Assembly: GCF_020509005.1 (NCBI RefSeq)
Contig: NC_063019.1
Location: 2,480,001 to 2,544,000 of the forward strand
DNA length: 64,000 nt
Reading direction: 5' to 3'
Origin: Fulvia fulva
Lineage: Eukaryota; Ascomycota; Dothideomycetes; Mycosphaerellales; Mycosphaerellaceae
Position numbers and translations under genes: made by a program. The notes under the pieces are model-generated. The model saw nothing but the letters and a program-made list of their open reading frames with translations. It had not been told where the DNA came from and made no database searches. This document shows positions 20,019 through 55,150 of the stretch, piece by piece (position 1 is the stretch's first letter; the number at the start of each line of letters is the position of its first letter).

Positions 20019-21084
20019 GTCGACGACGAGAATTACCTATACGTAGTGTCGGCTACGAACCTCTCGTCTAGCTACGAGAGAGCCAAGTATTCTCACGCTA
20101 GAGCGTCGTGGGCGCGACGGGCGCGTATCGTAGGCGAAGCCGCGGCGAATAGAGGACTACTAGCAAAACGGGTATAAAAACTATCCGACGAGCGTATACT
20201 CGTATCGGGAGCGAGTCCCTCTTCTTTCTACGTATAAGAAGGGCGCGGAACCGTGGCCTATACGCTCGACAGGATACCTCTAGTATAAGTATAGAATTTT
20301 CACCTCCGGAGACCGTAAACCGAGCGGGCTAAGCGACGAACATTAGACGAGCGGACTATAGAACAACAACTAAGCGGACTATACGACGGCGTCGAGCGGA
20401 CTACGAAACAATCTGGTGTTTACTAGCGGGCAATGCGGTAGGTAGGTGGACACGCGACGAAGCCTATAAGGGCCTATTAAACACCCGGTATAGGAACGAG
20501 GGTTTTGCCTAAGGCACTACCTATCCCGCTACATAACGTACCTAGTCTGATATAGTAGATTGCGACGAGGAAAAGACGATAGCCTAAGCAAGGAAAAGAC
20601 GGCTATTAGGACGGGAAAAGACGTATAATGCAAGTGGATTAGTTCTGTGATCGGGGAGGATCGAGGGTAGGGTAATAAGGAACTTTATATTAGTTAGTAG
20701 GTGGAAACGCTGCCCGGCGTGGTGTGTGCCCCGAGCAAACCTGCGAGGTATAGACGGCCGCTTTCTAGAGATAGGCTGCGGTAACGGGAAGGGCGTCAAA
20801 ACCTAGGGCGTAGTGTACACTAGCAGCGACGGCTGACACTGTCTGTACAGCCCGAGAGGACGGATGGGCATGTCGGTCAATAGATAGCACTAAAGGGCTT
20901 AGGCCTATAGAGGTGGATATTGGCTTAAGGAGCAAACAGGGAGGGAGGGCGTAGAGGGAAGCTTTTGCTCCGGGCTAACCTCTCGAAACGAGGCTACACG
21001 GTGGTGCTAGATGAGTGGAAAGCGCGGTTAAGACTTGTCACCTTATCTCGTAGCTAGCTTGCTAAATACGATTTCTTCCTTGCC
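20019..21084 (+). other. Shared 5' module of the MINE-like elements
   Basis: Non-coding as far as I can see. It starts gtcgacgacgag and ends at cttccttgcc, where the sequence switches to LINE. It carries spaced copies of GCGGACTA at about 20351, 20373 and 20395, with a diverged one near 20325, and a GTATAAAAA box near 20172. Its first 600 bp are RIPed and its last 400 bp much less so. The other copy is 31742-32820 (minus). Confidence 0.7.
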
Positions 21085-22614
21085 AACTGGACAGTCCAGT
21101 TTATCCAGTCCTTCCTCAGAGGCAGAACCACAAGACTAAGACTGGGCAGATACAAATCTGACAGCATGCCTACAGAGACAGGAATCCTATAGGGATCAAC
21201 AATGTCTCCAATACTGTTTCTCCTCTTTATGGCAGACCTGCCAGCAAAGCTAAACTCCAGAAACACATCAGCCTCAGGGTTTGTAGATGACATAAACATC
21301 CTAGCCTGGTCAGACAGCACAGAAGAGAACTGCAGAATCTTGCAGAAGAAACACAAGGAATGTGAGGAATGGGCCAGGAAACATGGAGCCAGACTTGCCC
21401 CAGAGAAGTATCAACTCATCCACTTCAGTAGAGCCAGAAACAGACACAATATGCAAGCCCCAATCACTATTCAGGGACACATAACAGAACCCTCAAGTGA
21501 ATTAAGGATGCTAGGAATATGGATGGATCCAAAGCTCAGCTGGGGACCACAGGTCAAGAAAGCACAGGCAAGAGCAGACAACAACAGGCAATCAATTGAC
21601 AGGCTTACAGCCTCCACATAGGGAGCCACATTTGCGAAAGCAAAGGTTATGTACAAGGCCATTGTGAAGCCAGCCATGCTATATGGAGCCCAGATCTGGT
21701 CAGCCTAAGACAAGATCCCAAAGAGAATTGCAGATCCTATAAGCAGAGCCTAAGCCTCCTGTCTGAAAAAGGTGCTTGGAGCATACAAGTCAACTCTAAC
21801 AAGGGTGGTCGAAATGGAGTCTGGCTCCCCACCAGCCAAGCTCTACCTTCAAGGGTTGAGATACCAGTATGTAGGAAAGACGTCTGCATACCCAGCCTAG
21901 CTAGTAATCTAGAAGGCAGTCAACAAAATCAGGAGCCAGTGCACAAGAAGGCACAGACAAGCAAGACCCAATCTAGCCCTATAGAAGCAGCAGGACCTGC
22001 AGAAGTTCAAAGAACTAACAGAACAGCTGCACCTAGCCCAGCAGGAACAGGACAGGAGGGCTCAAGGGAGAGGATCAGCAGCCAGCCAAGGGAAGAAGCA
22101 ACAGTCTCTAGCTGAAAGGATGGCAGGACTCCTCTGGAAGACTGAATGGACAAGAACCCCACAGAGGCCAGGAACCCCAAAGGCACTCCAACAGTTTGGT
22201 AGCCACAACTACCTACTGTACTCAGACCTGACCAGGTCAGAAGCAAGCATAGCAATACAAATCCGCTCTGAACACATCGGAGTCAGGGCATACCTGCATC
22301 AGAGAAAAGTCCTAGGTATCGAAGACAAGAGTTGCCTATGCGGCTACCTGTCCCAGAATGTCGAACATAGACTTCTGGTTTGCAAAGAATGGAGTACAGG
22401 GAGAGGTGAATGGAGGGCAAGGGCAAGGAACAGAAACTTCCAAGCCATGATCAGCAATAAGGGAGACCTCCAGAGAATTACAAGGTGGATCATCCACCAA
22501 GGATTTTTGGAGCAGTTCTCTCTTACTAGGGAAACAGAGAGATGGATTGAGGAGAGAAAGAAGGAGGAGGAGAGCAGGAAGAGGGGGACAACTCTAGGGT
22601 TGCAGACAAGGTAG
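21085..22614 (+). pseudogene. MINE-like copy 1: LINE reverse transcriptase C-terminal half
   Basis: LINE ORF2 from just before the catalytic motif to the end. A SFLRGRTTRLRLGRY block is followed by STMSPILFLLFMADLP and the intact GFVDDINILAW near 21285. A LGIWMDPKLSWGPQ block and a C-terminal knuckle (CLCGYLSQNVEHRLLVC, near 22340-22380) follow. The reading frame stays open for long stretches (21202-21621 and 22120-22614). It is broken by about ten TAG/TAA codons in contexts where CAG, CAA or TGG is expected, so it was hit lightly by RIP. The start of the domain is absent because of the fusion, not because of point mutation. Confidence 0.85.
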
Positions 22615-33906: not shown

Positions 33907-34124
33907 TGTTAAACAGGTACGAGTTACGTAGCAGTGGAAGACGGCGGATCACACGAAAGACGAAGAAGGACCCAATGGGATAGCGTGTATCTATATACAG
34001 TATCGCCGGTGTTAGTGTAGGTGTTTCAGGAGGGACAGCTGTACTCAGGACTTGACTAGCAAGCCCTGATTACTAATCCCCCTAAGCACCTAATGTTGAC
34101 CCTATGACCTGCATATTCTCAACA
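33907..34124 (-). repeat. copia-2 3' LTR
   Basis: 218 bp, TGTTAAACAGG to TCTCAACA as written on the plus strand. It keeps most CA/TG dinucleotides. It pairs with 38529-38746. Confidence 0.92.
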
Positions 34125-34136
34125 CTCCCACTCAGG

Positions 34137-37100
34137 TCAGAAGGTCTCAAACAATCCCTTATACAAGCTGGAGCTGCCTTACAAAGTTTTGAAACTGCTG
34201 GCCATTAAGGGGCTTAGCCAGCCCATCAGCAACTATGTCCTTTATGTGGCAGTAATCCACTACAATCTTCCTTTACTACGAGAGATTCCTGACATAGTGG
34301 TATGCAACATCAATATGCTTTGACCTGTCATAGACATGGGCATCTTTAACAAAGGTCAAAGCTGCTTGGTTGTCACCTATAAGCTCTACGGGTCTCAGCT
34401 CATCAACAGTACTGCTTGCCTTGATCCTAGGTTAGAATGAACACTCTCTAACCAGGTCAGGACACCTTATCTCCCTAAGGACTGCAGCAAGAAACTGTGA
34501 CTGCTTGGCTGCTGCATTTATGGCTATGAACTTAGCCTCCATTGTTGATGTGGCAACAGACTTCTGCTTCCTACTTATCCAGGACACAGGTGATCTATAA
34601 AGGAACCACACATGTCTAAGGATTGAGACTCTGTCTGCCTTGTCCATGGCATAACCAGAATCTGGGTATCCCTGGAGAATACCTCCTCCTCTTCTGTACA
34701 TCAAGCCTAGGTCCGGGTATGATCTCAGATACCTGGAGAGTTTCTTCAAAGCTCTAAGATGTTGCTTTGGAGGGTCAGCAACATATGAGCTGATTCTTCT
34801 AAGGGGGAAAGCAAGGTCTGGCCTTGTCATTGTCATTGGCCACATCCAGGTACCATTGCAACCCTGGTACTCCTGTTTGTTGCACCTCTCATCCATAGTA
34901 GCTGAAGGTCTCAGATCCTCATAGCTGTCCATAGGTGAGAGTGTGGGTGTGGCCTTCTCTGGAGAGATGCCCATCTTGGCAAGGTTAGTTTGGATGTAGT
35001 GTCCTTGATCAAGCTTTACAGTGCCTTAGGACCTGTCTCTTGTAATCCTCATTCCAAGGATCTTCGTAGGTTCACCAAGATCTTTAATCTTAAACACTTT
35101 TCCAAGCTCAGCCTTAAACCACTGAACATCTGACAGCTTTGGAGCTACAATGGGGATGTCATCCACATAGGTGAGGACCATGAGGTCTCTTCCTCTGTAG
35201 ATGAGTAGGCATGGATCCACCTGGGACTAGGTGGATCCAATCTGTTCTAGCTTGGCAACATAGAGCTTGTTCCAATCTCTAGCTGCTTGCTTCAGTCCAT
35301 GTAGGCTTCTAAGGACCTTGAAGACCATATTTGGTGGAATTTCAACACCTAGGGGTGGGATCATGTAGATGTCTTCAAGAAGGCTGCTTTCGGTGAAAGC
35401 ATTGTTCACATCCACCTAGTATATCTCAAGATCTCTCTCACATACTACAGCCATGAAGACCCTAAGGGTATCATGCCTAACAGTAGGTGCAAAGGTCTCT
35501 TCAAAGTCAACACCATATTTTTGTGAAAACCCTCTTGCAACCAGTCTTGCCTTGAACTCTTCAATGGCTCCACTGATCATTCTTTTCACATCAAAAACCC
35601 ACTTAGATGTAACCAGGCTTGCACCCCTTGGTGGTACAACTGGTTCCAAGGTGTTGTTGCTTCCTAAGGCAATAAGTTCTTTCTGGATTGCCTCTTTCCA
35701 CATATGTCCCCAATTGGGGTCTCCCACTGCCTCCTTATAGGACTTTAGGATTGGCACTTCCTGCTGGTAGGCTATAGCCTGCCTAACAGCAGCAAATGCA
35801 TATCCCTCCACATCATTCAGGATTTCCTCAACCCAGCTCATAGTTGGATCAAGATGAAACATCTGAGCAATCAATGCCCTATAATGCTTGGCTTCATGCT
35901 CAGCAAAGCCATCATCTTCATCCCCCCTTGACCTCTTGTTGCCTGTAAGCTGAGGTGGCTGTTGAGGTTGATCCTCCTGAACAAGTTCCTCTTCCTTTTC
36001 TTTTCTTGGAGTCCCCTCTACTCCAATCTTCTGGTACTCTCTAATGTCTTTTGGAGGTTGGGGAAGTTGCACAAACACTGTTTTAGCAAGGAAAGAATTT
36101 CCCTTGCACCATCACTACGGATTGCAGATAGAAAACACCTTGAGCTGTTCTCTACCTGAACCTTCCATTCCTTTAGAGCTGTAGGAGCATCACTCCTAGC
36201 CTTCAAAGGGACTACCCACTTCTTCCTCAAGAAGTTGTCTACAATCTCAAGCCAGTACTTGAAGCCAAGTCTTGAGACTGCCCCTTGAAAAGGCCCACAG
36301 ATGTCAATAGAGATGAGGGCCAGCCTCTCTCCTTTCCTCTCTGTGGCAGGTCCTTTGAACTTCCTCATGTTTGCAAGGGAGCAGACCTTGTAGTTCTGGT
36401 GTTCAGAAGGAACAGGAATGGGATCTTTCTTGTCAGTGACTCTATGCAGGTTTCTTAGCAGTCCCTTGCTAAGGTGTGCACATCTTCTATGCTATAGCTC
36501 CCACTGGTCCTAGGACTCAGTGGCAGTCATAGCCTATTCCAATTCATACTCAAAATGTGTACCTAACTTGGACAGATCCAAGTCATGCTCCTGTAGAGAG
36601 GCATATGCTTGAGGCATAGCTTCAAGCTGCTCTGAAACACTTTGAATGAATGGAACACCCCCTCTCAGCTTTGTCTAGACAACAGGTTTTCCAGAAAGGG
36701 ATTTAAGGGTGAAACTGGGTGGTTGGACAGCAAATTGTTGGCTGAACTGATTCCAAGAAACAAGACTAACTCCAAGGCCAGGAACAAACAAGACATTTTC
36801 TAAGACAATTTGCTTTCTAGAAGGACCACCCATTACTGCACTTCCCATATGTGTAGCTTGTAGATAGCCACCCCCAACCTTGATCCACTTCCTCTTTTGA
36901 AGAGGCTTCAGTGTCCTGAATAGTGAATCTTGGTCAGTCATATGTAATGAAGCACAAGAGTCAAGCAACCACTCGGACGAGGGGTACTTGCCCTTAGCTT
37001 CTACAGTGGAATGGGCAACCTCATCAACATCATCATCTTCTGATGGTATCTCAGAGTCTGATGCGTCTTCCTGGGTCGCACGGGCCCTTGCAGGCTTCTT

Positions 37101-38060
37101 ACTAGGGGAGGCCTTTGGCTTGCGGCTCTCCTTCATCTGCTTTGCAAGGTCCGTCATCACCTTGAGGACATCACGAAGGTTTGGTGATGATGACCTCCTA
37201 CGAGGTGGTGACGGTTGTCTCTTAGCAGGGTAGGTAACCCTAGCTAGTTTGTCCTTGTTCCTAACAGCCTGCTGAGCTGTAGAAAGGTGTAGGCACTTGC
37301 TCATAAAATGGTCACTATTGTAGAGATGGTACGTGAGCTTGCCCTGGAAACCCTTCTTAGCGAACATGGCTGTCCCTTGATAAATCATTGATTCTTGCTT
37401 CTCCCTAAGGATTGCAAGAATGTCTTGTGGTGAGAGATTCACCTGGGCATCAATTGCATCGCGAATTGAGCCAAATGAGTCTGGCAGAGCTGCTAAGAGT
37501 TGCTAGATCTTTCTGTCCTTAGTCTTGATGTCTTGGAACTAAGGCGAGATTGAAACAGCCCTCCTTGCAATTGAGCTAAGCTCCTGCCAGGCGTCATCTA
37601 TTGACTAGTCCTCTGTCATCACGAAATTGGTGTATTGCTGAAGCAAACTTCTTCTAGTAGCGAGAAGTCTTCTCTTGTATTTGGCTTCAGCCCATTCCCA
37701 CAACTCCTTCGTATGCCGGATCTCGTATGTCATCTCTTAGTCATCTGTCGATAGACAGATGTACATCTCATACAGGGCCGTTACATTGTGCCGTCTATAC
37801 GATGCCTTCCTTATCGCTTAATCTAAAGGAAGGGATGACTCCGATGATGTAGAGGGTGTCGCTATAGATAGGGTCGTAGCGGGAATGTCCGTAATAATGT
37901 CTTCGAGGACCTAGTCAACCTGCTTTAATACTAGGTATATTCTTATTAGCTTGAACTATGTTTCGTGGTTCTCTCTTGTTAGAACAGGTACTACTCTCTT
38001 TCTTATAAACCCAGTCTCGTTCTCTATTTTTTGTAAGTTAAGGGACAGGTTGGCTACCCT
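34137..38060 (-). pseudogene. copia-2 gag-pol polyprotein
   Basis: One minus-strand polyprotein in copia order. A UBN2-type gag comes first (about 38000-37300), with a degenerate zinc knuckle (SDHFMSKC, near 37300). A protease motif, WLLDSCASLHMT, follows near 36970, where Cys stands in place of the usual Gly. The integrase core keeps SIDICGPFQ and IRSDGAREIL, but the segment with the catalytic Glu is missing near 36060, apparently deleted. Reverse transcriptase (35740-35050) has SKWVFDVKR, DVNNAF and an intact LTYVDD. RNase H (34970-34140) ends at a TGA at 34137-34139. In-frame TAGs, as at 35413-35415 and 35221-35226, fit former CAG codons. The start is approximate. Confidence 0.88.
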
Positions 38061-40463: not shown

Positions 40464-41367
40464 TACGCTATAGTATAAGCATACTCGACCTAGTATTTGC
40501 TACTAGGAGCATCACGGGGCGAATCTAGTAGTGCTAGCCGTACGAAGAACTCGATTCCGACTCCGACTACATCTTAGTTATCACCTCGATCGAGATAGAG
40601 ATCCCGACGCAACCGGAAGGACCCGCTCGACCGTAGTAGAAGAAAGCTAACTAGGCAAAGGTCCACAAGACGCTGAAACAGAAAATCCTGGATCTGGGAT
40701 TGGCACCGAGCACATGTCATGCAGATCTCGACGACAAGGCGCATCGATTGCAAGGTGCGATCCAAGAGACAATTGAGCTTACCATCCCGAAAGCCCGACC
40801 ATCACACCTCGCACGAGCGGGGTGGACTACGGAATGCAAAGAAGCGACACGCCAGGCGAGGCGAGCACGACGACGATGGACGCGAAGCGGACTCGACGCC
40901 GACTATCTAGCCTACCGGACGGCGACGAACTCGAAGAAGTGACAGATTCGGAAGGACACTAGAACGACGTGGCGATAGACGGTGGCGGATATCACCAAAG
41001 ACCCGAAAAATGTGCTGTTGGCGGTTGTGAACCTCCAAAGGTAAGCGTAGCGGAATGGAGCTCTCTACCAACCCTTCTAGACTGCAAAGTAGCGTGCGAT
41101 CCACGCTACCGCTACCCGACGTACAGTGCTTATTATACGACGACATAGGCGTTAGCGACGAGTATATGTTTACGCAACAGGCACAGTGCGGTAGGTCACG
41201 TGACCCTAAAACTTGAAAGTTGACCGATCAGAGCGGGCGCTAAGGCTAGTTGAGGGCTGGTATAGAGCTTCACTCCCTCGCTGACGCCTCACCTACGTAC
41301 TCGCAAGCTCGTACTCCGGTGTGGCTAGCGCTCGGTCGCTACGCTTAAAGATGTGGAAACTAGCTAA
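40464..41367 (+). pseudogene. LINE-2 endonuclease C-terminal part and linker
   Basis: Continuation of the LINE-2 endonuclease after copia-1a, leading to the reverse transcriptase. The C-terminal endonuclease blocks are recognisable but broken up to about 40640. From 40680 the sequence is rich in CA/TG and an R/A-rich linker reads open in places (40700-40942). Some stops and probable frameshifts remain. Confidence 0.6.
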
Positions 41368-42666
41368 GTGGGCGAGAACGTCAGCGTTCGAGCTACAAGC
41401 ACCACCTCAGTTCCCGCCGTTGAAAACAAGGGACGGCATCTACCAAAGCTCGAACGACGCGAAAGCAGACATCCTCGCAAGCACTTCTTCCCGCTAGAAA
41501 AGGCAGCCGACCTCTCTGACATTGCGAACCATCAATACCCCAACGAAATACCTATGCTGCAAACAGTCACCGTTGAAGAAGTCGTCAAAATCCTGAAGGC
41601 CTTACCGCCGGACAAGGCTCCAGGCCCGGACGGCATTCCTAACAGAGTGCTTCGAGAGTGCCGCGGACCGCTCTTGCAACCGCTGGCGAGCTCCTTTCAG
41701 GAGTGTCTCGAGATGTCACACCACCCAGCTCCGTTCCGACACTCCAACACCGTCGTGATACGAAAGCCCCAGAAGCCGTGCTACGACGTCCCGAAGGCAT
41801 ACCGGCCGATCGCGTTGCTCAACACGTTGGGCAAAGCTCTAGAAAAGATCGTGGCGATACGGCTGTCACAGTTAGCAGAAGAACATCATCTCCTCCCTGC
41901 CACACAGATGGGAGCGAGACCTCGGCGGTCCACCGTGACGGCACTGGAGCTCCTCACGGAACAGATTCGGACAGTGTGGGCCCAAGATAAGAAGCTGGTC
42001 GCCACACTTCTCAGCCTCGATATCTCGGGTGCATTCGACAATGTCCCCCACGACAGGCTTCTCCACAACGTTCGCAATGCGGGTATCCCGAGCTGGACCG
42101 TGCAATACATCAAGTCATTCCTCACCGACCGCACAACATTCTTAACACTGGGCACATACCGCGATAAGACCCGGCCGGTCTCCACCGGAATACTGCAGGG
42201 ATCCACTCTGTCTCCGATTCTCTTCTTGTTCTTCGCCTCAACGCTGCTGCCACAGCTTAATAGTGGCCTAACATCCGCAGTGGGATTTGTAGACGACACC
42301 AACATCCTCACATTCGGCCGATCGACAGAGGATAACTGTCGGACATTGGAACGAGCGAACGACATACGTATCGAATGGGCCAAGACGCACGGAGCCACTT
42401 TCGCCCCTGACAAGTATCAACTCATTCACTTCACCCCCTGCCTAAAGAAGTTCAACTTGCAGGCCACGATCCAGATTCCTGGGTTTCAGGGTAATCCCTC
42501 GCCAGTGGTTCGAATCCTCGGCGTCGACCTCGACTCTCGACTGAAATGGGGTCCTCACATCCGACAGACCGCAAAGGCTACAGCCCAGATGTCGGCAGTC
42601 ACTCGACTGACGCAAAGCACGGGGGGGCATCGTTTGCAAAGGCGAGGCAGATTTACGCCGCAGTAG
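41368..42666 (+). pseudogene. LINE-2 reverse transcriptase (432-codon open frame)
   Basis: The best-kept LINE reverse transcriptase here, in one open frame. Blocks in order: EEVVKILKALPPDKAPGPDG (about residue 71), YRPIALLNTLGKALEKIV (about 145), LLSLDISGAFDNVPHDRLL (about 213), ILQGSTLSPILFLFF (about 272), the catalytic GFVDDTNIL (about 303), and RILGVDLDSRLKWGPH (about 379). The frame is lost after STGG near 42625 by a one-base change. LINE sequence then continues in other frames (CLRTVTGAYKTT, LEHEASISPLDLHLEKLA) to about 42970. The first ATG is probably not the true ORF2 start, because the endonuclease lies upstream. Confidence 0.88.
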
Positions 42667-43060
42667 TGCGACCGGTATTGAAGTACGGGTGCAAGTGTGG
42701 TATGACCCCGAGGACAAACGAATTGGCCGGAACAAACTCATCTACCCGTTGCAAACAAAACAAAGCAAGTGCCTGCGGACTGTCACAGGAGCGTATAAGA
42801 CGACAAATGTGTAGCTCCTCGAACATGAAGCCAGTATCTCACCCCTAGATTTACACCTAGAGAAACTCGCAGTGACATACGCACTGAAATCAGCCGACAC
42901 CGACGGGAATCGGACTGTCACACAGGCGTGCGACCAGGTGGAAGAGCGAGCCCTAAGGACACTTGACATCCGATTAACGAAACCCCTCTTATTAGTAAGG
43001 AAGCTCTAGAGAAGACTGGAGCGCCTCGACAGCAACGGGGTAGGAGGGCAGGGAATAACG

Positions 43061-43678
43061 TCGACGACGGGTGAGCGTTGTATTTGGCTGTTATAGGAAC
43101 AGCAAATGGTTTTACAGCATCTCTATCAAAAGGGCTTCGGCTACTTATAGAGAAGAAGGAGTTTTACCCGGGCCTCGGCCACGGCTTTCCTCCTTGTCGG
43201 CAGGTAGATAGGGGCAACACGCATGGACCCGCAATGGAGCTATATCGGGGTAAGAATGAATAGTAATTATTCTCGTTGACTTGACTTCTCTGTATTAAAC
43301 TGATATATTCATAGTACCTAGCTTCGAGCTTCAGGGAATACCTAAAGCTAAGTACCCGTAGTCGATATTACTTTTACTAATAAGCTCATATTACTTTAAT
43401 TTCGACCTTAATATCGGGAGAGGTTAAATTATCTACTCTAGATAGAGTTCTTCTAGGAGTAGCTAACTAGGACATGCCGGCTCTACCTTAATATTAGGTT
43501 TATAGAATAAAGGAGAAGAGGGTGTCCGAGTAACAAACAGTTTAGTATATAGGCCTTCCTACCTCTCTTCTACATTAATTTCTATTCGAAGTTACTACCG
43601 CCATTAACCTACCTCCTATCTAATTACCGAGCCTTCGTACGAGTCACTATATCTCGAAACTGTTATAATCTCGCTACT
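43061..43678. other. Spacer between LINE-2 and the secreted-protein gene
   Basis: 43061-43260 contains a short open stretch (43078-43263, 61 codons) with no recognisable domain, and may be a LINE-2 tail. From 43260 to 43678 the sequence is TA-rich and poor in CA/TG, as in RIPed DNA, with no gene. It would be the promoter region of the gene starting at 43679. A TATATAGG box near 43545 and a C/T-rich stretch (43550-43610) are compatible with a fungal promoter, but the evidence is weak. Confidence 0.5.
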
Positions 43679-44047
43679 ATGCATCTCGCTCAAGCTTCTT
43701 GGGTTATCCTACTTCCACTCTTAGGTCAGATTACAATGATATCCGCACTTTCGTGCGACTACGGGAACTCCGACCCCTTTCCAAATTCCATTCCAGGCCA
43801 CCCCCAATGTACGAAGAACGTTCTAGATCCTATGACGGGCAGGGTCTACGACTTCAATCAATACTGCGTAAGACCTGGATCTGTTCGACTTTGCCAAATA
43901 TGACTAACGGGTAGCTAGTGCACGAATGTCTCCCCTCCTCCTCCGGGTTCCGTAGAAAGGGGCGGTTGCGGGTCGGTAGCAGTACGATGTAAACTTGGCA
44001 TTGCGGGTGATTACTACGGCCGACCTGCTTGCTGTCCAGATCCATAA
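43679..44047 (+). CDS. Small cysteine-rich secreted protein, effector candidate (2 exons)
   Basis: Exon 1 is 43679-43867 and exon 2 is 43919-44047. The 51-bp intron (43868-43918) has a GTAAGA donor, a TGACTAAC branch site and a TAG acceptor, typical of filamentous fungi. The predicted product has 105 residues. Residues 1-25 form a signal peptide (hydrophobic core WVILLPLLG, likely cut near ALS-C). The mature 80 residues hold eight cysteines (26, 44, 63, 64, 80, 87, 101, 102), two of them CC pairs, one made exactly at the splice junction. Without splicing the frame ends after 74 codons. Unlike its flanks, the gene keeps normal CA/TG content and has no premature stop. The cysteine spacing is not that of hydrophobins and I do not recognise the family. 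Small size, secretion, many cysteines and a repeat-rich setting are typical of fungal effectors. That role is inferred. Confidence 0.72.
43868..43918 (+). other. Predicted spliceosomal intron of the secreted-protein gene
   Basis: Phase 0, 51 bp. An earlier TAG at 43912-43914 is only about 8 nt from the branch adenosine. It would give an exon 2 with a single cysteine, so the TAG at 43916-43918 is preferred. Confidence 0.7.
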
Positions 44048-44499
44048 TTATGGAGTCTAGAGAATGTTGAAACGCTGCGACTATCTATGGTGTCCCTACC
44101 TCAGAGGGCCGGAGACGGAGCTCTGTATCTAGCAGTCCGCCAAAACCGAAAACCTAATTTCAGGACATCAATTCTATCGTAATTTCGGACAACACTACGA
44201 ACACTATACGAAAACTTATGTAGAAGTGTCTATGTTCTCTAACGTGCTTCACTACCGAGCGGGCTATACTACCGAGCGGGCCACTTTTGGTAAGAACTGT
44301 ACCACTTCTACTTTAATTACGACGGTATCTTAACACGACGACATCCTATAGAATCGCCACTAGGAGGACAATTCCTCTTCAGATTCTTCGCTATCTAGCG
44401 AGTCTACTTAACAGGTACGTACGTTATGCCCCGACTCGCCACATCGCTTATAGCGTCGTAGCCTTAGTACTAGCCGAACACTATCTAGCGACTCTCTAC

Positions 44500-45059
44500 T
44501 CACTTCCTGCCTCCTAGTATCCTCTAGAGGTATCAATTGCGACGCCTTATCGAAGGTTAGAGACCCTCTAGACTGAATGTACTTACGCTTTCGTGCTTTC
44601 CGCTATATAAGGGCGTCGTTAGACTTACGTAGCTCACTAATCTCGCTTCGTATAAGAGCTATCTAATGCGCTATCTCTCTACTCCCTCTCTGTTGCCCTA
44701 TTAAACGACCTTCCTCTTTCTACTACGCCTTTCTGAACCCGTAACGACGCTCTAAGACGTAATGACACCTATTATAAACCCTGTCTCGTCGAAGTTATAG
44801 GTGTCCTAGTTAAGGATACTATACTTCTCCTTTATATTACGTATAAGTAAGAACTACTTCTCGATAACGTCTAGATCTTCTATTAGGGCTCGCTAACGAT
44901 CGTATCTACGTGTTATACGAACCTTTAGCTTACGATGCCGCCTAATGAACCTGTCTGTCCAATTGAGACTAGCGGGCTTAAGACCCTTCTCTTTTAGTAA
45001 TAAATCGGCCATTACTCGTATACTAGCCTTTAATAGCGGGAAACCTCTAAGATCTAGCT
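44500..45059 (-). pseudogene. pogo/Fot1-like transposase, C-terminal pieces
   Basis: Minus strand. After the copia-1b insertion the frame resumes with LDLRGFPLLKASIRVMADLL and LNWTDRFIRRHRKLKVR, a CENP-B-type DNA-binding region. The first catalytic block DTYNFDETGF lies near 44790. Soon after VVTGSERR the sequence jumps to the C-terminal RSEISELRKSNDAL region. About 200 residues with the remaining catalytic acids are therefore deleted. Stops at former CAG/CAA codons are also present. Confidence 0.8.
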
Positions 45060-45064
45060 CGAGT

Positions 45065-45434: not shown

Positions 45435-48400
45435 ATGGCCACTACCGAGACGCCGGTGACTACCGGTGCCCTACCTCAGGGTACCGTGGTTCTGAAGAGC
45501 CATGACCAATGGGACAAGTTTGACCGTCAGCTAGAGCTCTACGCAGAGTCTTTAAATGTCTGGAAGTATGTAGATCCTCACCAACTGAGTAACGAGCCAA
45601 CAGAGCCTACTTACTTGACGTTTGAGGAAATCCAACAAGCGTACACGGCAGGAGACGCTACATTAAGAGATCTCATCAAGCTACGACAAACAGACGCAGA
45701 CCGAAGGTAACGGATGTACGACATCTTTGCTGCTGCGCGATCAAAGCTCATTACCTACCTCATCCGTACGACGACAGAGCTAGGGCAAGAGCTAATGCAC
45801 GGCCAGAACACCCTCAGAGCGAAATACTAGGCTCTCAAGGATCAGTATGGTCCAGACGATATGCTGCGTAAGCGGCAGCTCACGCTTGAGCTGTCTAGGC
45901 TTCAGAAGGCTAGCGCACGCAGAATCGATGACTGGTGCTCAGACTGGTTAGTTTTGCAGACCAAGATGCTTAAGTGCAACCACGCCGAGTACGACGACCT
46001 TAGTAGACACTTCCTACTTGCTATTCAGCAGAAGCAGGCTCCAGCCTACGGTGCTTCTCTATACAACGAGTGGAAGCGTGACAAAATGTCACTACAAAAG
46101 CTTACTAAGCGTTACCTCGAATGGATACGCGACACCGTACCAGCAACAACCAACGGTCGATCAGTCTTCGCAACCTTCTCCGGAGAAACCTCAGCAGAAG
46201 CAGAGGATGAAACAGCACCCACAGGTGCTGGTCAAAAGGAGGGTGACCGTGGCAGCAGCCGTGGTGACAACCGTGGCAACAGCCGCGGTGACAAGGGTCG
46301 TGGCAGCAGCCGCGGCGACAAGAACAAAGACAAGGACAACAACAGGCCAAGCGGCTGCTGGAACATCACCGGCGAGCCCAAGGACACCTGTCACAAGGGC
46401 CTGTTCTCATGCGATGTGATCAACCCCGACAAGCGCCTAGCAAAGGATCAGCGCTTAGAGCAGTAGAAGAAGTACTAGAAAAACTTCATCAACTACTGCT
46501 TGAGCGACGACGGCGAGCGTCTGCTTGGCGTGTTGAATCGCAACAATCGCAAGGACCAGGAACGTGACAAGGCTATTGCTGATGCGAAGAAGGCATCACC
46601 AAGCGATAAGGGCTTTGTTGGCCTTACTGTTCTTTCTAGCTCAATTAGCAAGTTGAGCGTCAACTTCAGGGATTGCTGGGTGTATAATAACTGTTCAGAC
46701 ACTCATGTGATCAATCATCATGACCAGGAGGGTGTAGAGTTCATTGCAGAGCGCCTCACCACCTCAGAAATCCAGGCTGGAACAACCACCTTTCCAATTG
46801 CAGCGTTAGGGCGCGTTCATATGTCAATTAGGGGCCATTCATTCACCTTGCTGGATGTGGCTTACTGCCCAGGCTTTCATGTGAACGTCATCTCTCACAC
46901 ACGCATAGAAAGAGCCGGACTCTAGTGGCACAGACGCAGCAATTCAATGTGGCATAACGACACTAAATTGATAGACCTACACCGCCCTACTGGTACAATC
47001 CCTTTCTTCAAGGTGGTCACACCACCTAAGTCACCCATCATTTACCAATGGCCTACAAAAGAGGGCCTAGTACTGCCGAAGGTCACTGAAAAGATGCGCA
47101 ACGCGCACTTCATCAGCACTATTAGCAGGGGTGCAAACATCGGCGATGAACCTGCCAATAGCGCAGCATCTCCAACTGCTCAAGAGGATGGTGATCGCAC
47201 CGTTCTCGTAGTCATGAACAGCACTAGGGGCACTCAAGGTGTAGCTACGTCCAGTAGGACCCCTATCAAACACCGAAAGCTCTCTGGCCGCCAGTAGCAT
47301 CAAATCTTTGGTCACATTGGCGCTGAACGCATCAAGCAGTTGCCGCTTAGAGTTGAGGGGGTGATCATTAACGATAGTCCAAGCGCACCCCTCACTACAC
47401 ATTGCAGAGCATGTGGGCTTAGCAAAGCTCATAAGGTGCACAATCGGTCTCAGCCCATCAGGGTGATGACCCTATACGGCCACATGGCCATAGACTTGGT
47501 AGAATTCACTGTCGCCTATAACGGTGACAGGTACCTCGTCCACTTCTACGATCTGGATACCTATAGACACTTCTAGTTCACCATCAAGAACAGGGATTAG
47601 CAATCGGTGTTGGCTTGCTTTAATAGCCTGCTGAGCTTCATCAACTTCATTGGTCGCAGGTTCGTATGCTTCTACAGCGACAACGAGCCCGCCATTAGGA
47701 AGGTGTTTCGCTCAGTCATCAACAACAACAAGATTGAATGGCACGCAACCGCGGAATACGCGCCTGCGCAGGACCTAGCAGAAAGAGCTGGAGCTCTGAT
47801 CATCACTATAAGCAGAACCATTCGCATCCACGCACGATTGCCGGAAAAGCTTTGGCCAGAATGCACTACAGCAGCGGCGTACATCCTCTAGCGATCCCCT
47901 ATCTAGTCAAAGGGCTGGAAGACCCCATTCGAATTGGCAACAGGACGAATTCCGAACGTGGGTCACATGGTGGTGTATAGCTCCCTTGCATACGTGTTCA
48001 TCTATGGACTAGATCAGCCTGGCAAGAGCGAGAAACTCCAAGAGAGAGCGCTTATAGGCTACCTTATGGGATACGACTCCACTAACATCTACCGCGTATG
48101 GGACCTATCAAAAGATAGGGTTATGCGAGTCAAGGACGTCCTCTTCGATGAGACCACGTTCTATGACCCATCACGCCTAACAGCAGGGTACACGACCCCT
48201 GTCGAGAACATCGCAACAGCGGAACCGGCTAAAGAGCCTAAACAATACTACGACCTGTATGTCGCTCATCACGAGCAAGACATAGCACAGGCCGAGGGGG
48301 TGGAAGAACAGGCTCAGCAGCCGCACACCTAACAACCTCGAGACGCCTACCAAAAGCTCCTTAGGCAAGAACCACACTGGCCGCAACACCGCGAGTCAGC

Positions 48401-53155: not shown

Positions 53156-55150
53156 CTCGTGTTGCAAGCCCCGCGCCGAAGGCGTGTTGACCTGTTACGT
53201 TCTTATCCGAACACACCGCCGGCTTGGCGCTCAGCTTTATATTTAGAGTTTTCTCAGGTAGCTTTTCTGTATCTCAGATTCACACCTGCCAAGGTTCTCA
53301 CAGGCCACCTCAACGCAAATCACGTGCTCAACGCGCATCTCAATCTCGCGTTCTACGAGGTGTATTCAATCTATTACAATACCACCACATTATGTCTAAT
53401 TACTACGAAATTGAGGATGCTATATCAGAGGCTATTGAGTACTACAATGCGTGCGAGCCAGCCCTCCCCGTCACCCACGTCGCGTCCATGTTCGCTGTTC
53501 CCTACCATCACCTGAACGCGCGCTTGAATGGCCGTCTATCTCGATTAGAGCGTGCACCTACCAACCGGAAGCTTACAGACGAGCAGGAAGAGGTATTACT
53601 ACAATATCTAAGGCGATTAGATCAGTGTGGTATGTCCCCACGACTCCGGATGGTGGCACTTGTAGCCAATTCAATCTTAAGACGATCTCATTCAGGCTAT
53701 GGGCCACCACCCTCTGTTGGAGCCCATTAGGCTGATAGGTGGAACGATCGCAATCCCTCATGGTTTAAGAGACGTCAGAAGCCACAGGAGTTATCAAGAG
53801 CTGTTGCTGAAGAGCTAGAAGACCTTACAAACTGGTATGCGAAGTACTTCGCGGTCTGCGATAAGCATGGCATCCTGCCTTCTGATACTTGGAATATGGA
53901 CGAGTCTGGCTTCAGAGTGGGTGTTGCTAAGGCTAAATACGTACTTCCTAAGTGTCCATCGCGTGAGGCTCGTATTCCGAATAGCAGCAACCGCGAGAGT
54001 CTTACGGTGATAAAGGCTATCTCAGCTGCTGGAAAGAAAGTCCCTGCTATGCTTGTTCTGATAGGCAAGCAACATATGGCCAGCTGGTACCGGGAACCTC
54101 AACGACGATACGATAGTTGGTGTGTCTAAAACCGGCTACACGAACGACCAACTAGCACTTCGCTAGATTGAGCACTTCAATGAGTATTCAAGGCGTACGC
54201 AGCTTGGCTCTAGGCGGCTGCTGCTAATGGATAACCATGGCAGTCACTGCACGAAGGAGTTCATTCAATATTGCGACGAGAACCTAATTATCCCCTTCGG
54301 ACTCCCTTCACATGCTACGGCGGTACTGCAGCCACTGGATGTAGTGGTAATTCAACCATATAAGCACTACCACGGAGAAGCTGGAGACCGAGCTGCTCTC
54401 TATGGAATAGAGAATTACGACAAGCTGGCCTTCCTTGCTGACTTTGAGCACTGCAGAACGCAAGCTATGAAGGAGTCCACTATTATATCATCCTTCAGAG
54501 CGACAGGTCTATATCCGTACGACCCTGAGGTGGTATTAGGCCCTGTTCGTGCCCAGGTTGAGAGGACTCAGAGACCGAGAACACCGCCTCGAATGCACCC
54601 TGCAGAGGCTACAACACCTCTTACAAGCAGAGGGCTTCAGCGACAGTGTCAGGCTATTCTTCAACAACATATAGAGCCTCAATTGCGACGACAGCTACTG
54701 CCCTTGCTTAAGGGTGCTCAAATCCAAGCTATGGCTCACCAGCAAGCTCAGGACGATCTTGATGGATTCAACGCAGTGCACCGGCTACGCCTTGAAAGGA
54801 AGGCTAATAAGAGACGTAGACTACAACTTGGCGGTGTTATGAAGGCTTCAGAAGCTCGTGCTGCAACAGAACAGCGTATCGAAGACGACTTGGCTATACT
54901 GAAGCGGAAGACAGCTTATGCGGAACAGGCGGATTATAGGCATAGATTAGCAACGATAAGGCGCATCTGGCAGCCTCGATATGAGCTCAGAGGTATGAAG
55001 AGCGCCTTCCGAGGCAATATAGTCAACCATATGTGTGTTATAGATGAGATACGAGCCTTCGAGTGGGCCTAATACACCTTGATTTGTGTTGAGCACGTGA
55101 TTTGCGTTGAGGTGGCCAACACGCCTTCGGCGTGGGGCTTGCAACACGAG
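53156..55150 (+). mobile_element. pogo-like DNA transposon, nearly intact
   Basis: A 1995-bp element flanked by TA on both sides (53154-53155 and 55151-55152), with inverted repeats of about 55 bp starting CTCGTGTTGCAAGCCCC. The left repeat is broken by a 114-bp insertion (about 53190-53303), after which GCCACCTCAACGCAAATCACG resumes the match. TA duplication and a DDE transposase place it in the Tc1/mariner-pogo group. It is barely RIPed. Confidence 0.88.
53394..55072 (+). pseudogene. pogo-like DDE transposase
   Basis: The enzyme that would cut and paste the element. It starts at ATG 53394 (MSNYYEIEDAISEAIEYYN). Its helix-turn-helix region includes VTHVASMFAVPYHHLNARL. The catalytic blocks are TWNMDESGFRVG (near 53890) and LLMDNHGSHCTKEF (near 54220) with PLDVVVIQPYKHYH (near 54335). 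The lesions are a TAG at 53728-53730 (probably CAG), one extra base near 54091, and a TAG near 54163 (probably TGG). The long C-terminal part (54227-55072) is open, basic and rich in Q/R, with a predicted coiled coil, and ends at TAA. Length without lesions is about 560 residues, normal for the family. Confidence 0.88.

What the first reader, a model, noticed from the sequence alone, without database searches (positions are those of the whole stretch)
43679..44047. Intact small cysteine-rich secreted protein gene stranded in a RIPed transposon island
Splicing a canonical 51-bp fungal intron turns a 74-codon frame into a 105-residue protein with a signal peptide and eight cysteines in an 80-residue mature part, including two CC pairs. 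One pair is created exactly at the splice junction and another ends the protein, which is unlikely by chance. The gene has normal CA/TG content although both sides are TE or RIPed. This is the compartment where fungal effector genes are commonly found. I do not recognise the family.
Basis: partly seen in the sequence, partly recalled or inferred. Interest (0 to 1): 0.85.

Follow-up and report, generated by a model that had tools for sequence, protein, structure and literature searches.

The report
Known tomato leaf mould protein Ecp8
The small secreted cysteine-rich gene is real and was read correctly, but it is Ecp8, an already described candidate effector of the tomato leaf mould fungus, in the kind of repeat-rich surroundings where such genes are known to be enriched.

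Summary
Exon 1 (43679-43867), a 51-base intron and exon 2 (43919-44047), each exon translated apart, match residues 1-63 and 64-105 of a deposited 105-residue protein exactly: Ecp8 of Fulvia fulva, also called Cladosporium fulvum. The window's assembly (67,169,167 bases, 14 contigs) agrees with the published Race 5 genome (67.17 Mb, 14 chromosomes), whose authors name Ecp8 among genes whose annotation they verified with RNA-seq (PMC9453070, passages). Only the self match was found in the genome. The gene lacks the signature of RIP (repeat-induced point mutation). Upstream is a RIPed stretch with only its self match; a high-copy element begins about 192 bases past the stop codon. No homologue outside F. 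fulva and no Pfam or NCBIfam match was found. A hydrophobin match (E 0.71) is not significant; the fold model is uninformative (pLDDT 39.7). Its molecular target remains unknown here.

The parts
43679..43867 (+). Ecp8 exon 1 (codons 1-63), with a hydrophobic N-terminus that looks like a signal peptide
   Evidence: Translation identical to P0001 residues 1-63. The signal peptide is judged by eye; no predictor was run.
43868..43918 (+). 51-base intron, phase 0, GTAAGA...CTAAC...TAG
   Evidence: exact agreement of both exon products with the deposited protein
43919..44047 (+). Ecp8 exon 2 (codons 64-105 and TAA)
   Evidence: Translation identical to P0001 residues 64-105
43241..43678 (.). Upstream stretch with strong RIP-like composition and only its self match in the genome
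   Evidence: ratio 0.35; TA/AT 1.65; 1 match, the self match, query 43240-43678
44240..45064 (.). Part of a high-copy element; many other copies carry an inverted match to its first 70 or so bases about 1.1 kb away; the window copy matches only over this part
   Evidence: most copies begin at query base 193, i.e. 44240; 40 other matches spanning 820 or more of the 824 bases 44241-45064, a lower bound because only 40 of 1082 candidates were scored
41368..42666 (+). Reverse transcriptase open frame, probably of a non-LTR element (type inferred), upstream neighbour
   Evidence: RVT_1, E 7.3e-33, for 41554-42663; relatives at 63-69% and two short matches at 81% among the 40 of 235 candidates scored

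Best explanation
The feature is the Ecp8 gene of Fulvia fulva (syn. Cladosporium fulvum), a gene for a small cysteine-rich protein that is most likely secreted into the space between tomato leaf cells. Shown here: the gene model, its identity, the lack of other copies found in the genome, the lack of a RIP signature in the gene, and its repeat-rich surroundings. Inferred: about the first 23 residues are removed on secretion, the eight cysteines form up to four disulfides that stabilise the protein outside the cell, and it acts in the leaf apoplast, most likely by binding a host or wall component, as described for Avr2 (protease inhibitor) and Avr4 and Ecp6 (chitin-related). RIP acted on neighbouring repeats and leaked into single-copy flanks, while the coding part stayed intact because it is unique and probably under selection.
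For: Exact identity of both exon products to deposited Ecp8. Assembly size and contig number agree with the published Race 5 genome. The paper names Ecp8 as an example among 69 effector or candidate effector genes whose annotation was verified, and adjusted when needed, with mapped RNA-seq reads (PMC9453070, passages), and reports RIP leakage and effector enrichment in gene-sparse regions (same paper, abstract and passages). Only the self match in the genome. RIP contrast. The deposited protein stands on 5 contigs with one member sequence, which fits the five published isolate assemblies (PMC10823647, passages); that link is inference.
Against: No direct evidence of function was obtained: no family match, no homologue, no usable structure. 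Expression in leaves and any plant response to Ecp8 could not be checked; the 2018 paper that described this set of proteins was seen only as a reference. The passages I saw do not say whether the authors place Ecp8 in a gene-sparse region. The first 100 bases after the stop codon are not RIPed either, so selection on the coding part is not the only possible reason for the clean gene.
Confidence: 0.9

Rival explanations
1. It is a secreted antimicrobial protein aimed at competing microbes in the leaf, not at the plant.
For: Small, cysteine-rich and secreted-looking. I recall that the 2018 description of this set predicted antimicrobial-like folds for seven members; I do not know whether Ecp8 is one.
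Against: No sequence match to an antimicrobial family was found, but the tests are weak and the fold could not be modelled.
Confidence: 0.2
2. It is a divergent hydrophobin-like surface protein.
For: The best PDB sequence match is a hydrophobin (2fmc), with five cysteines (CC, C and CC) lined up. Eight cysteines with two CC pairs.
Against: E is 0.71, i.e. chance level. The order is C-C-CC-C-C-CC, not the hydrophobin order C-CC-C-C-CC-C (recalled). No Pfam family was reported up to E 10, though HMMER's filters drop most matches above about 0.1.
Confidence: 0.04
3. It is a chance frame or a transposon fragment.
For: Transposon frames and repeats lie on both sides.
Against: Exact identity to a deposited, named protein; only the self match in the 67-Mb genome.
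Confidence: 0.005

Closest known systems
Ecp8 of Fulvia fulva (UniRef A0A1P8YXI0)
   Same: All 105 residues, split 63 + 42 by the intron.
   Different: Nothing at the protein level.
Other F. fulva small secreted effectors (Avr and Ecp proteins)
   Same: Small, secreted, cysteine-rich as a class; Avr4E, Avr5, Avr9, Ecp1, Ecp5 and Ecp7 lie in gene-sparse regions (PMC9453070, passages).
   Different: Avr2, Avr4, Ecp2, Ecp2-2, Ecp2-3, Ecp4 and Ecp6 lie in gene-rich regions. No other place in the genome matched the Ecp8 protein at E up to 10.
Hydrophobin (PDB 2fmc)
   Same: Two CC pairs and a weak partial alignment over residues 49-104; hydrophobins have eight cysteines (recalled).
   Different: E 0.71; different cysteine order (against a recalled pattern); no Pfam match.

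Membership tests
F. fulva Ecp8 | Identical protein sequence | tested here: met
   Exon 1 equals residues 1-63 and exon 2 equals residues 64-105
F. fulva candidate effector (criteria in PMC9453070, and PMC10823647) | Shorter than 250 residues, at least 2% cysteine | tested here: met
   105 residues, 8 cysteines = 7.6%
F. fulva candidate effector (criteria in PMC9453070, and PMC10823647) | Signal peptide, no transmembrane segment in the mature part, no GPI anchor; EffectorP class | not tested
   None of these predictors was run; the N-terminus is hydrophobic by eye
F. fulva in-planta effector | Expressed in infected leaves and found in the apoplast | not testable with these tools
   A published RNA-seq check of the gene model is cited; expression in leaves and presence in the apoplast were not seen for Ecp8
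Hydrophobin | Cysteine order C-CC-C-C-CC-C (recalled) | tested here: not met
   Order C-C-CC-C-C-CC
Hydrophobin | Pfam hydrophobin match | tested here: not met
   0 families up to E 10, with the filter caveat

The most novel reading that the evidence does not exclude
Ecp8 is an orphan with no relative detected outside F. fulva and an eight-cysteine order that matched no family searched here, so it could hold a new disulfide fold with an undescribed apoplastic target.
Probability: 0.12. Interest if true: 0.45.

Novelty: already known. Interest (0 to 1): 0.12.

Why it matters
It shows that a reading of raw sequence alone recovered a real effector-type gene with its exact splice. The genome paper says such genes are difficult to annotate from ab initio prediction alone: 35 previously described candidates were missing from its first annotation, although Ecp8 is named in a separate group of 69 that was verified. 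Biologically it is one more example of a published pattern in F. fulva, candidate effectors beside repeats with RIP leakage. The open question is what Ecp8 does.

Tried and rejected
Chance frame: rejected by exact identity to Ecp8. Transposon fragment: only the self match in the genome. Paralogues in the same genome: none at E up to 10. Homologues elsewhere: 1 of 11 candidates passed E 10, the protein itself; the search needs shared 5-residue words and candidates of similar length, so distant relatives can be missed. Pfam and NCBIfam: 0 families. PDB by sequence: 4 matches up to E 10, the best at E 0.71, taken as chance. Structure: a single-sequence prediction, mean pLDDT 39.7, pTM 0.19, so no fold search was made. 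Papers, seven searches: 'Ecp8' with 'Cladosporium fulvum' gave 1 paper; 'Ecp8' alone gave 29 papers, of which 20 were listed and, by title and abstract start, none concerned this fungus; one search found the genome papers; some searches gave listings in which I saw no function for Ecp8. PMC9294515 has no mention of Ecp8 in its main text. Of PMC9453070, PMC10823647 and PMC9294515 I saw passages, not the whole text.

Full report
What was checked. The finding describes a two-exon gene at 43679-44047. The sequence and a script that kept the exons apart confirm it: exon 1 is 189 bases, the intron is 51 bases with GTAAGA at the 5' end, CTAAC inside and TAG at the 3' end, and exon 2 is 129 bases ending in a stop. 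The cysteines of the product lie at 26, 44, 63, 64, 80, 87, 101 and 102, and the 63/64 pair straddles the splice junction.

What it is. A search of 5.77 billion proteins with the 74-codon frame returned one protein, P0001, named Ecp8 of Fulvia fulva (UniRef A0A1P8YXI0), 105 residues. Exon 1 equals its residues 1-63 and exon 2 equals its residues 64-105. The window lies on contig 8 of an assembly with 67,169,167 bases in 14 contigs, in agreement with the published Cladosporium fulvum Race 5 genome of 67.17 Mb in 14 chromosomes (PMC9453070, passages). That paper states that 69 previously described effector or candidate effector genes, with Ecp8 as a named example, had their annotation verified, and adjusted when needed, with mapped RNA-seq reads. 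F. fulva is in the Mycosphaerellaceae.

Surroundings. RIP indices were computed in 500-base blocks over the whole window and for chosen stretches. The gene has a (CA+TG)/(AC+GT) ratio of 0.91, against 0.35 for 43241-43678 and 0.39 for 44151-44900. The RIPed upstream stretch and the less affected stretch 42667-43239 each gave only a self match in the genome. This fits RIP leakage towards non-repetitive DNA, of which the paper reports evidence on all chromosomes (abstract); an old repeat too decayed to match is the alternative. Further upstream is a reverse transcriptase frame (41368-42666; RVT_1, E 7.3e-33 for its part from 41554) without a RIP signature over most of its length, with relatives at 63-69% and two short matches at 81% elsewhere. 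Downstream, at about 44240, 192 bases past the stop codon, begins part of a high-copy element: 40 other matches span 820 or more of the 824 bases 44241-45064. Of the 18 stop-to-stop frames of 150 or more codons in the window, 17 were scanned against Pfam, one of them from its first ATG; the frame at 45952-46419 was not. Eight had a match at E up to 0.01. Five of these pass the curated cut-off and are reverse transcriptase, Pol or transposase (DDE) families; the three below it are HTH_Tnp_Tc5, FAR1 and MULE, also transposon-linked (FAR1 by recall). Nine had no match. I saw no host gene among them, but genes split by introns would be missed.

Copy number and relatives. The gene's DNA and the protein each matched only themselves in the genome. 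The full protein found only itself among 11 candidates at E up to 10. Pfam and NCBIfam gave nothing. The best PDB sequence match was a hydrophobin at E 0.71. CC, C and CC align, but the cysteine order differs from the recalled hydrophobin order and the score is at chance level, so it is not filed there. The single-sequence structure model is unusable (pLDDT 39.7).

Mechanism. Shown: an intact gene, its exact match to a deposited protein, and the lack of other copies found in its genome. Published: its standing as a candidate effector. Inferred: secretion, disulfide bonding and action in the leaf apoplast. The general model is that of the F. fulva effectors with known roles, Avr2, Avr4 and Ecp6 (as told in PMC9294515, passages; that Ecp6 binds chitin fragments is partly recalled): stable extracellular proteins that bind a host enzyme or wall sugar. 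Which target Ecp8 binds is not known from anything I read. PMC9294515 reports that nine of 41 cloned genes of the 2018 study induced a response in at least one of 25 tomato accessions; whether Ecp8 is one of the nine was not shown in what I read.

Novelty. The gene is known, named and deposited. The pattern is published too: 66 of 345 candidate effectors lie in gene-sparse regions, a significant enrichment (p 6.6E-15), while the other 279 lie in gene clusters (PMC9453070, passages). Where the authors place Ecp8 itself was not shown in the passages I saw. What remains open is its function and fold. The finding is a correct, unaided rediscovery, and ordinary for this genome.

On re-reading the calls I mended wording only (distance to the repeat, the cysteines aligned with the hydrophobin, the filter caveat, the 279 candidates in gene clusters, the list of paper searches).

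Noticed in passing
window 44240-45064: A high-copy element (at least 40 other copies; many carry an inverted match to its first 70 or so bases about 1.1 kb away) begins 192 bases after the Ecp8 stop codon. Against the majority of 30 aligned copies, 20 of the window copy's 24 differences are T>C or A>G, so this copy looks less RIPed than its relatives; in the other 29 copies 512 of 561 differences are transitions.
   Followed up: partly
window 41100-41349: A sequence of about 250 bases or more (its left end was not determined) with 40 other near-full matches at 95-96% identity, just before the reverse transcriptase frame.
   Followed up: no
window 34001-37500 and 21001-22500: Stretches almost without CpG (observed/expected 0.00-0.39 in 500-base blocks) and rich in CA/TG, the reverse of the RIPed surroundings; the first holds frames with RVT_2 and Pol_BBD matches. 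This may reflect CpG methylation decay or an element of foreign composition.
   Followed up: no
window 53191-55072: Transposase frames (DDE_1, and a weak HTH_Tnp_Tc5 match below its cut-off) with near-normal, un-RIPed composition.
   Followed up: no
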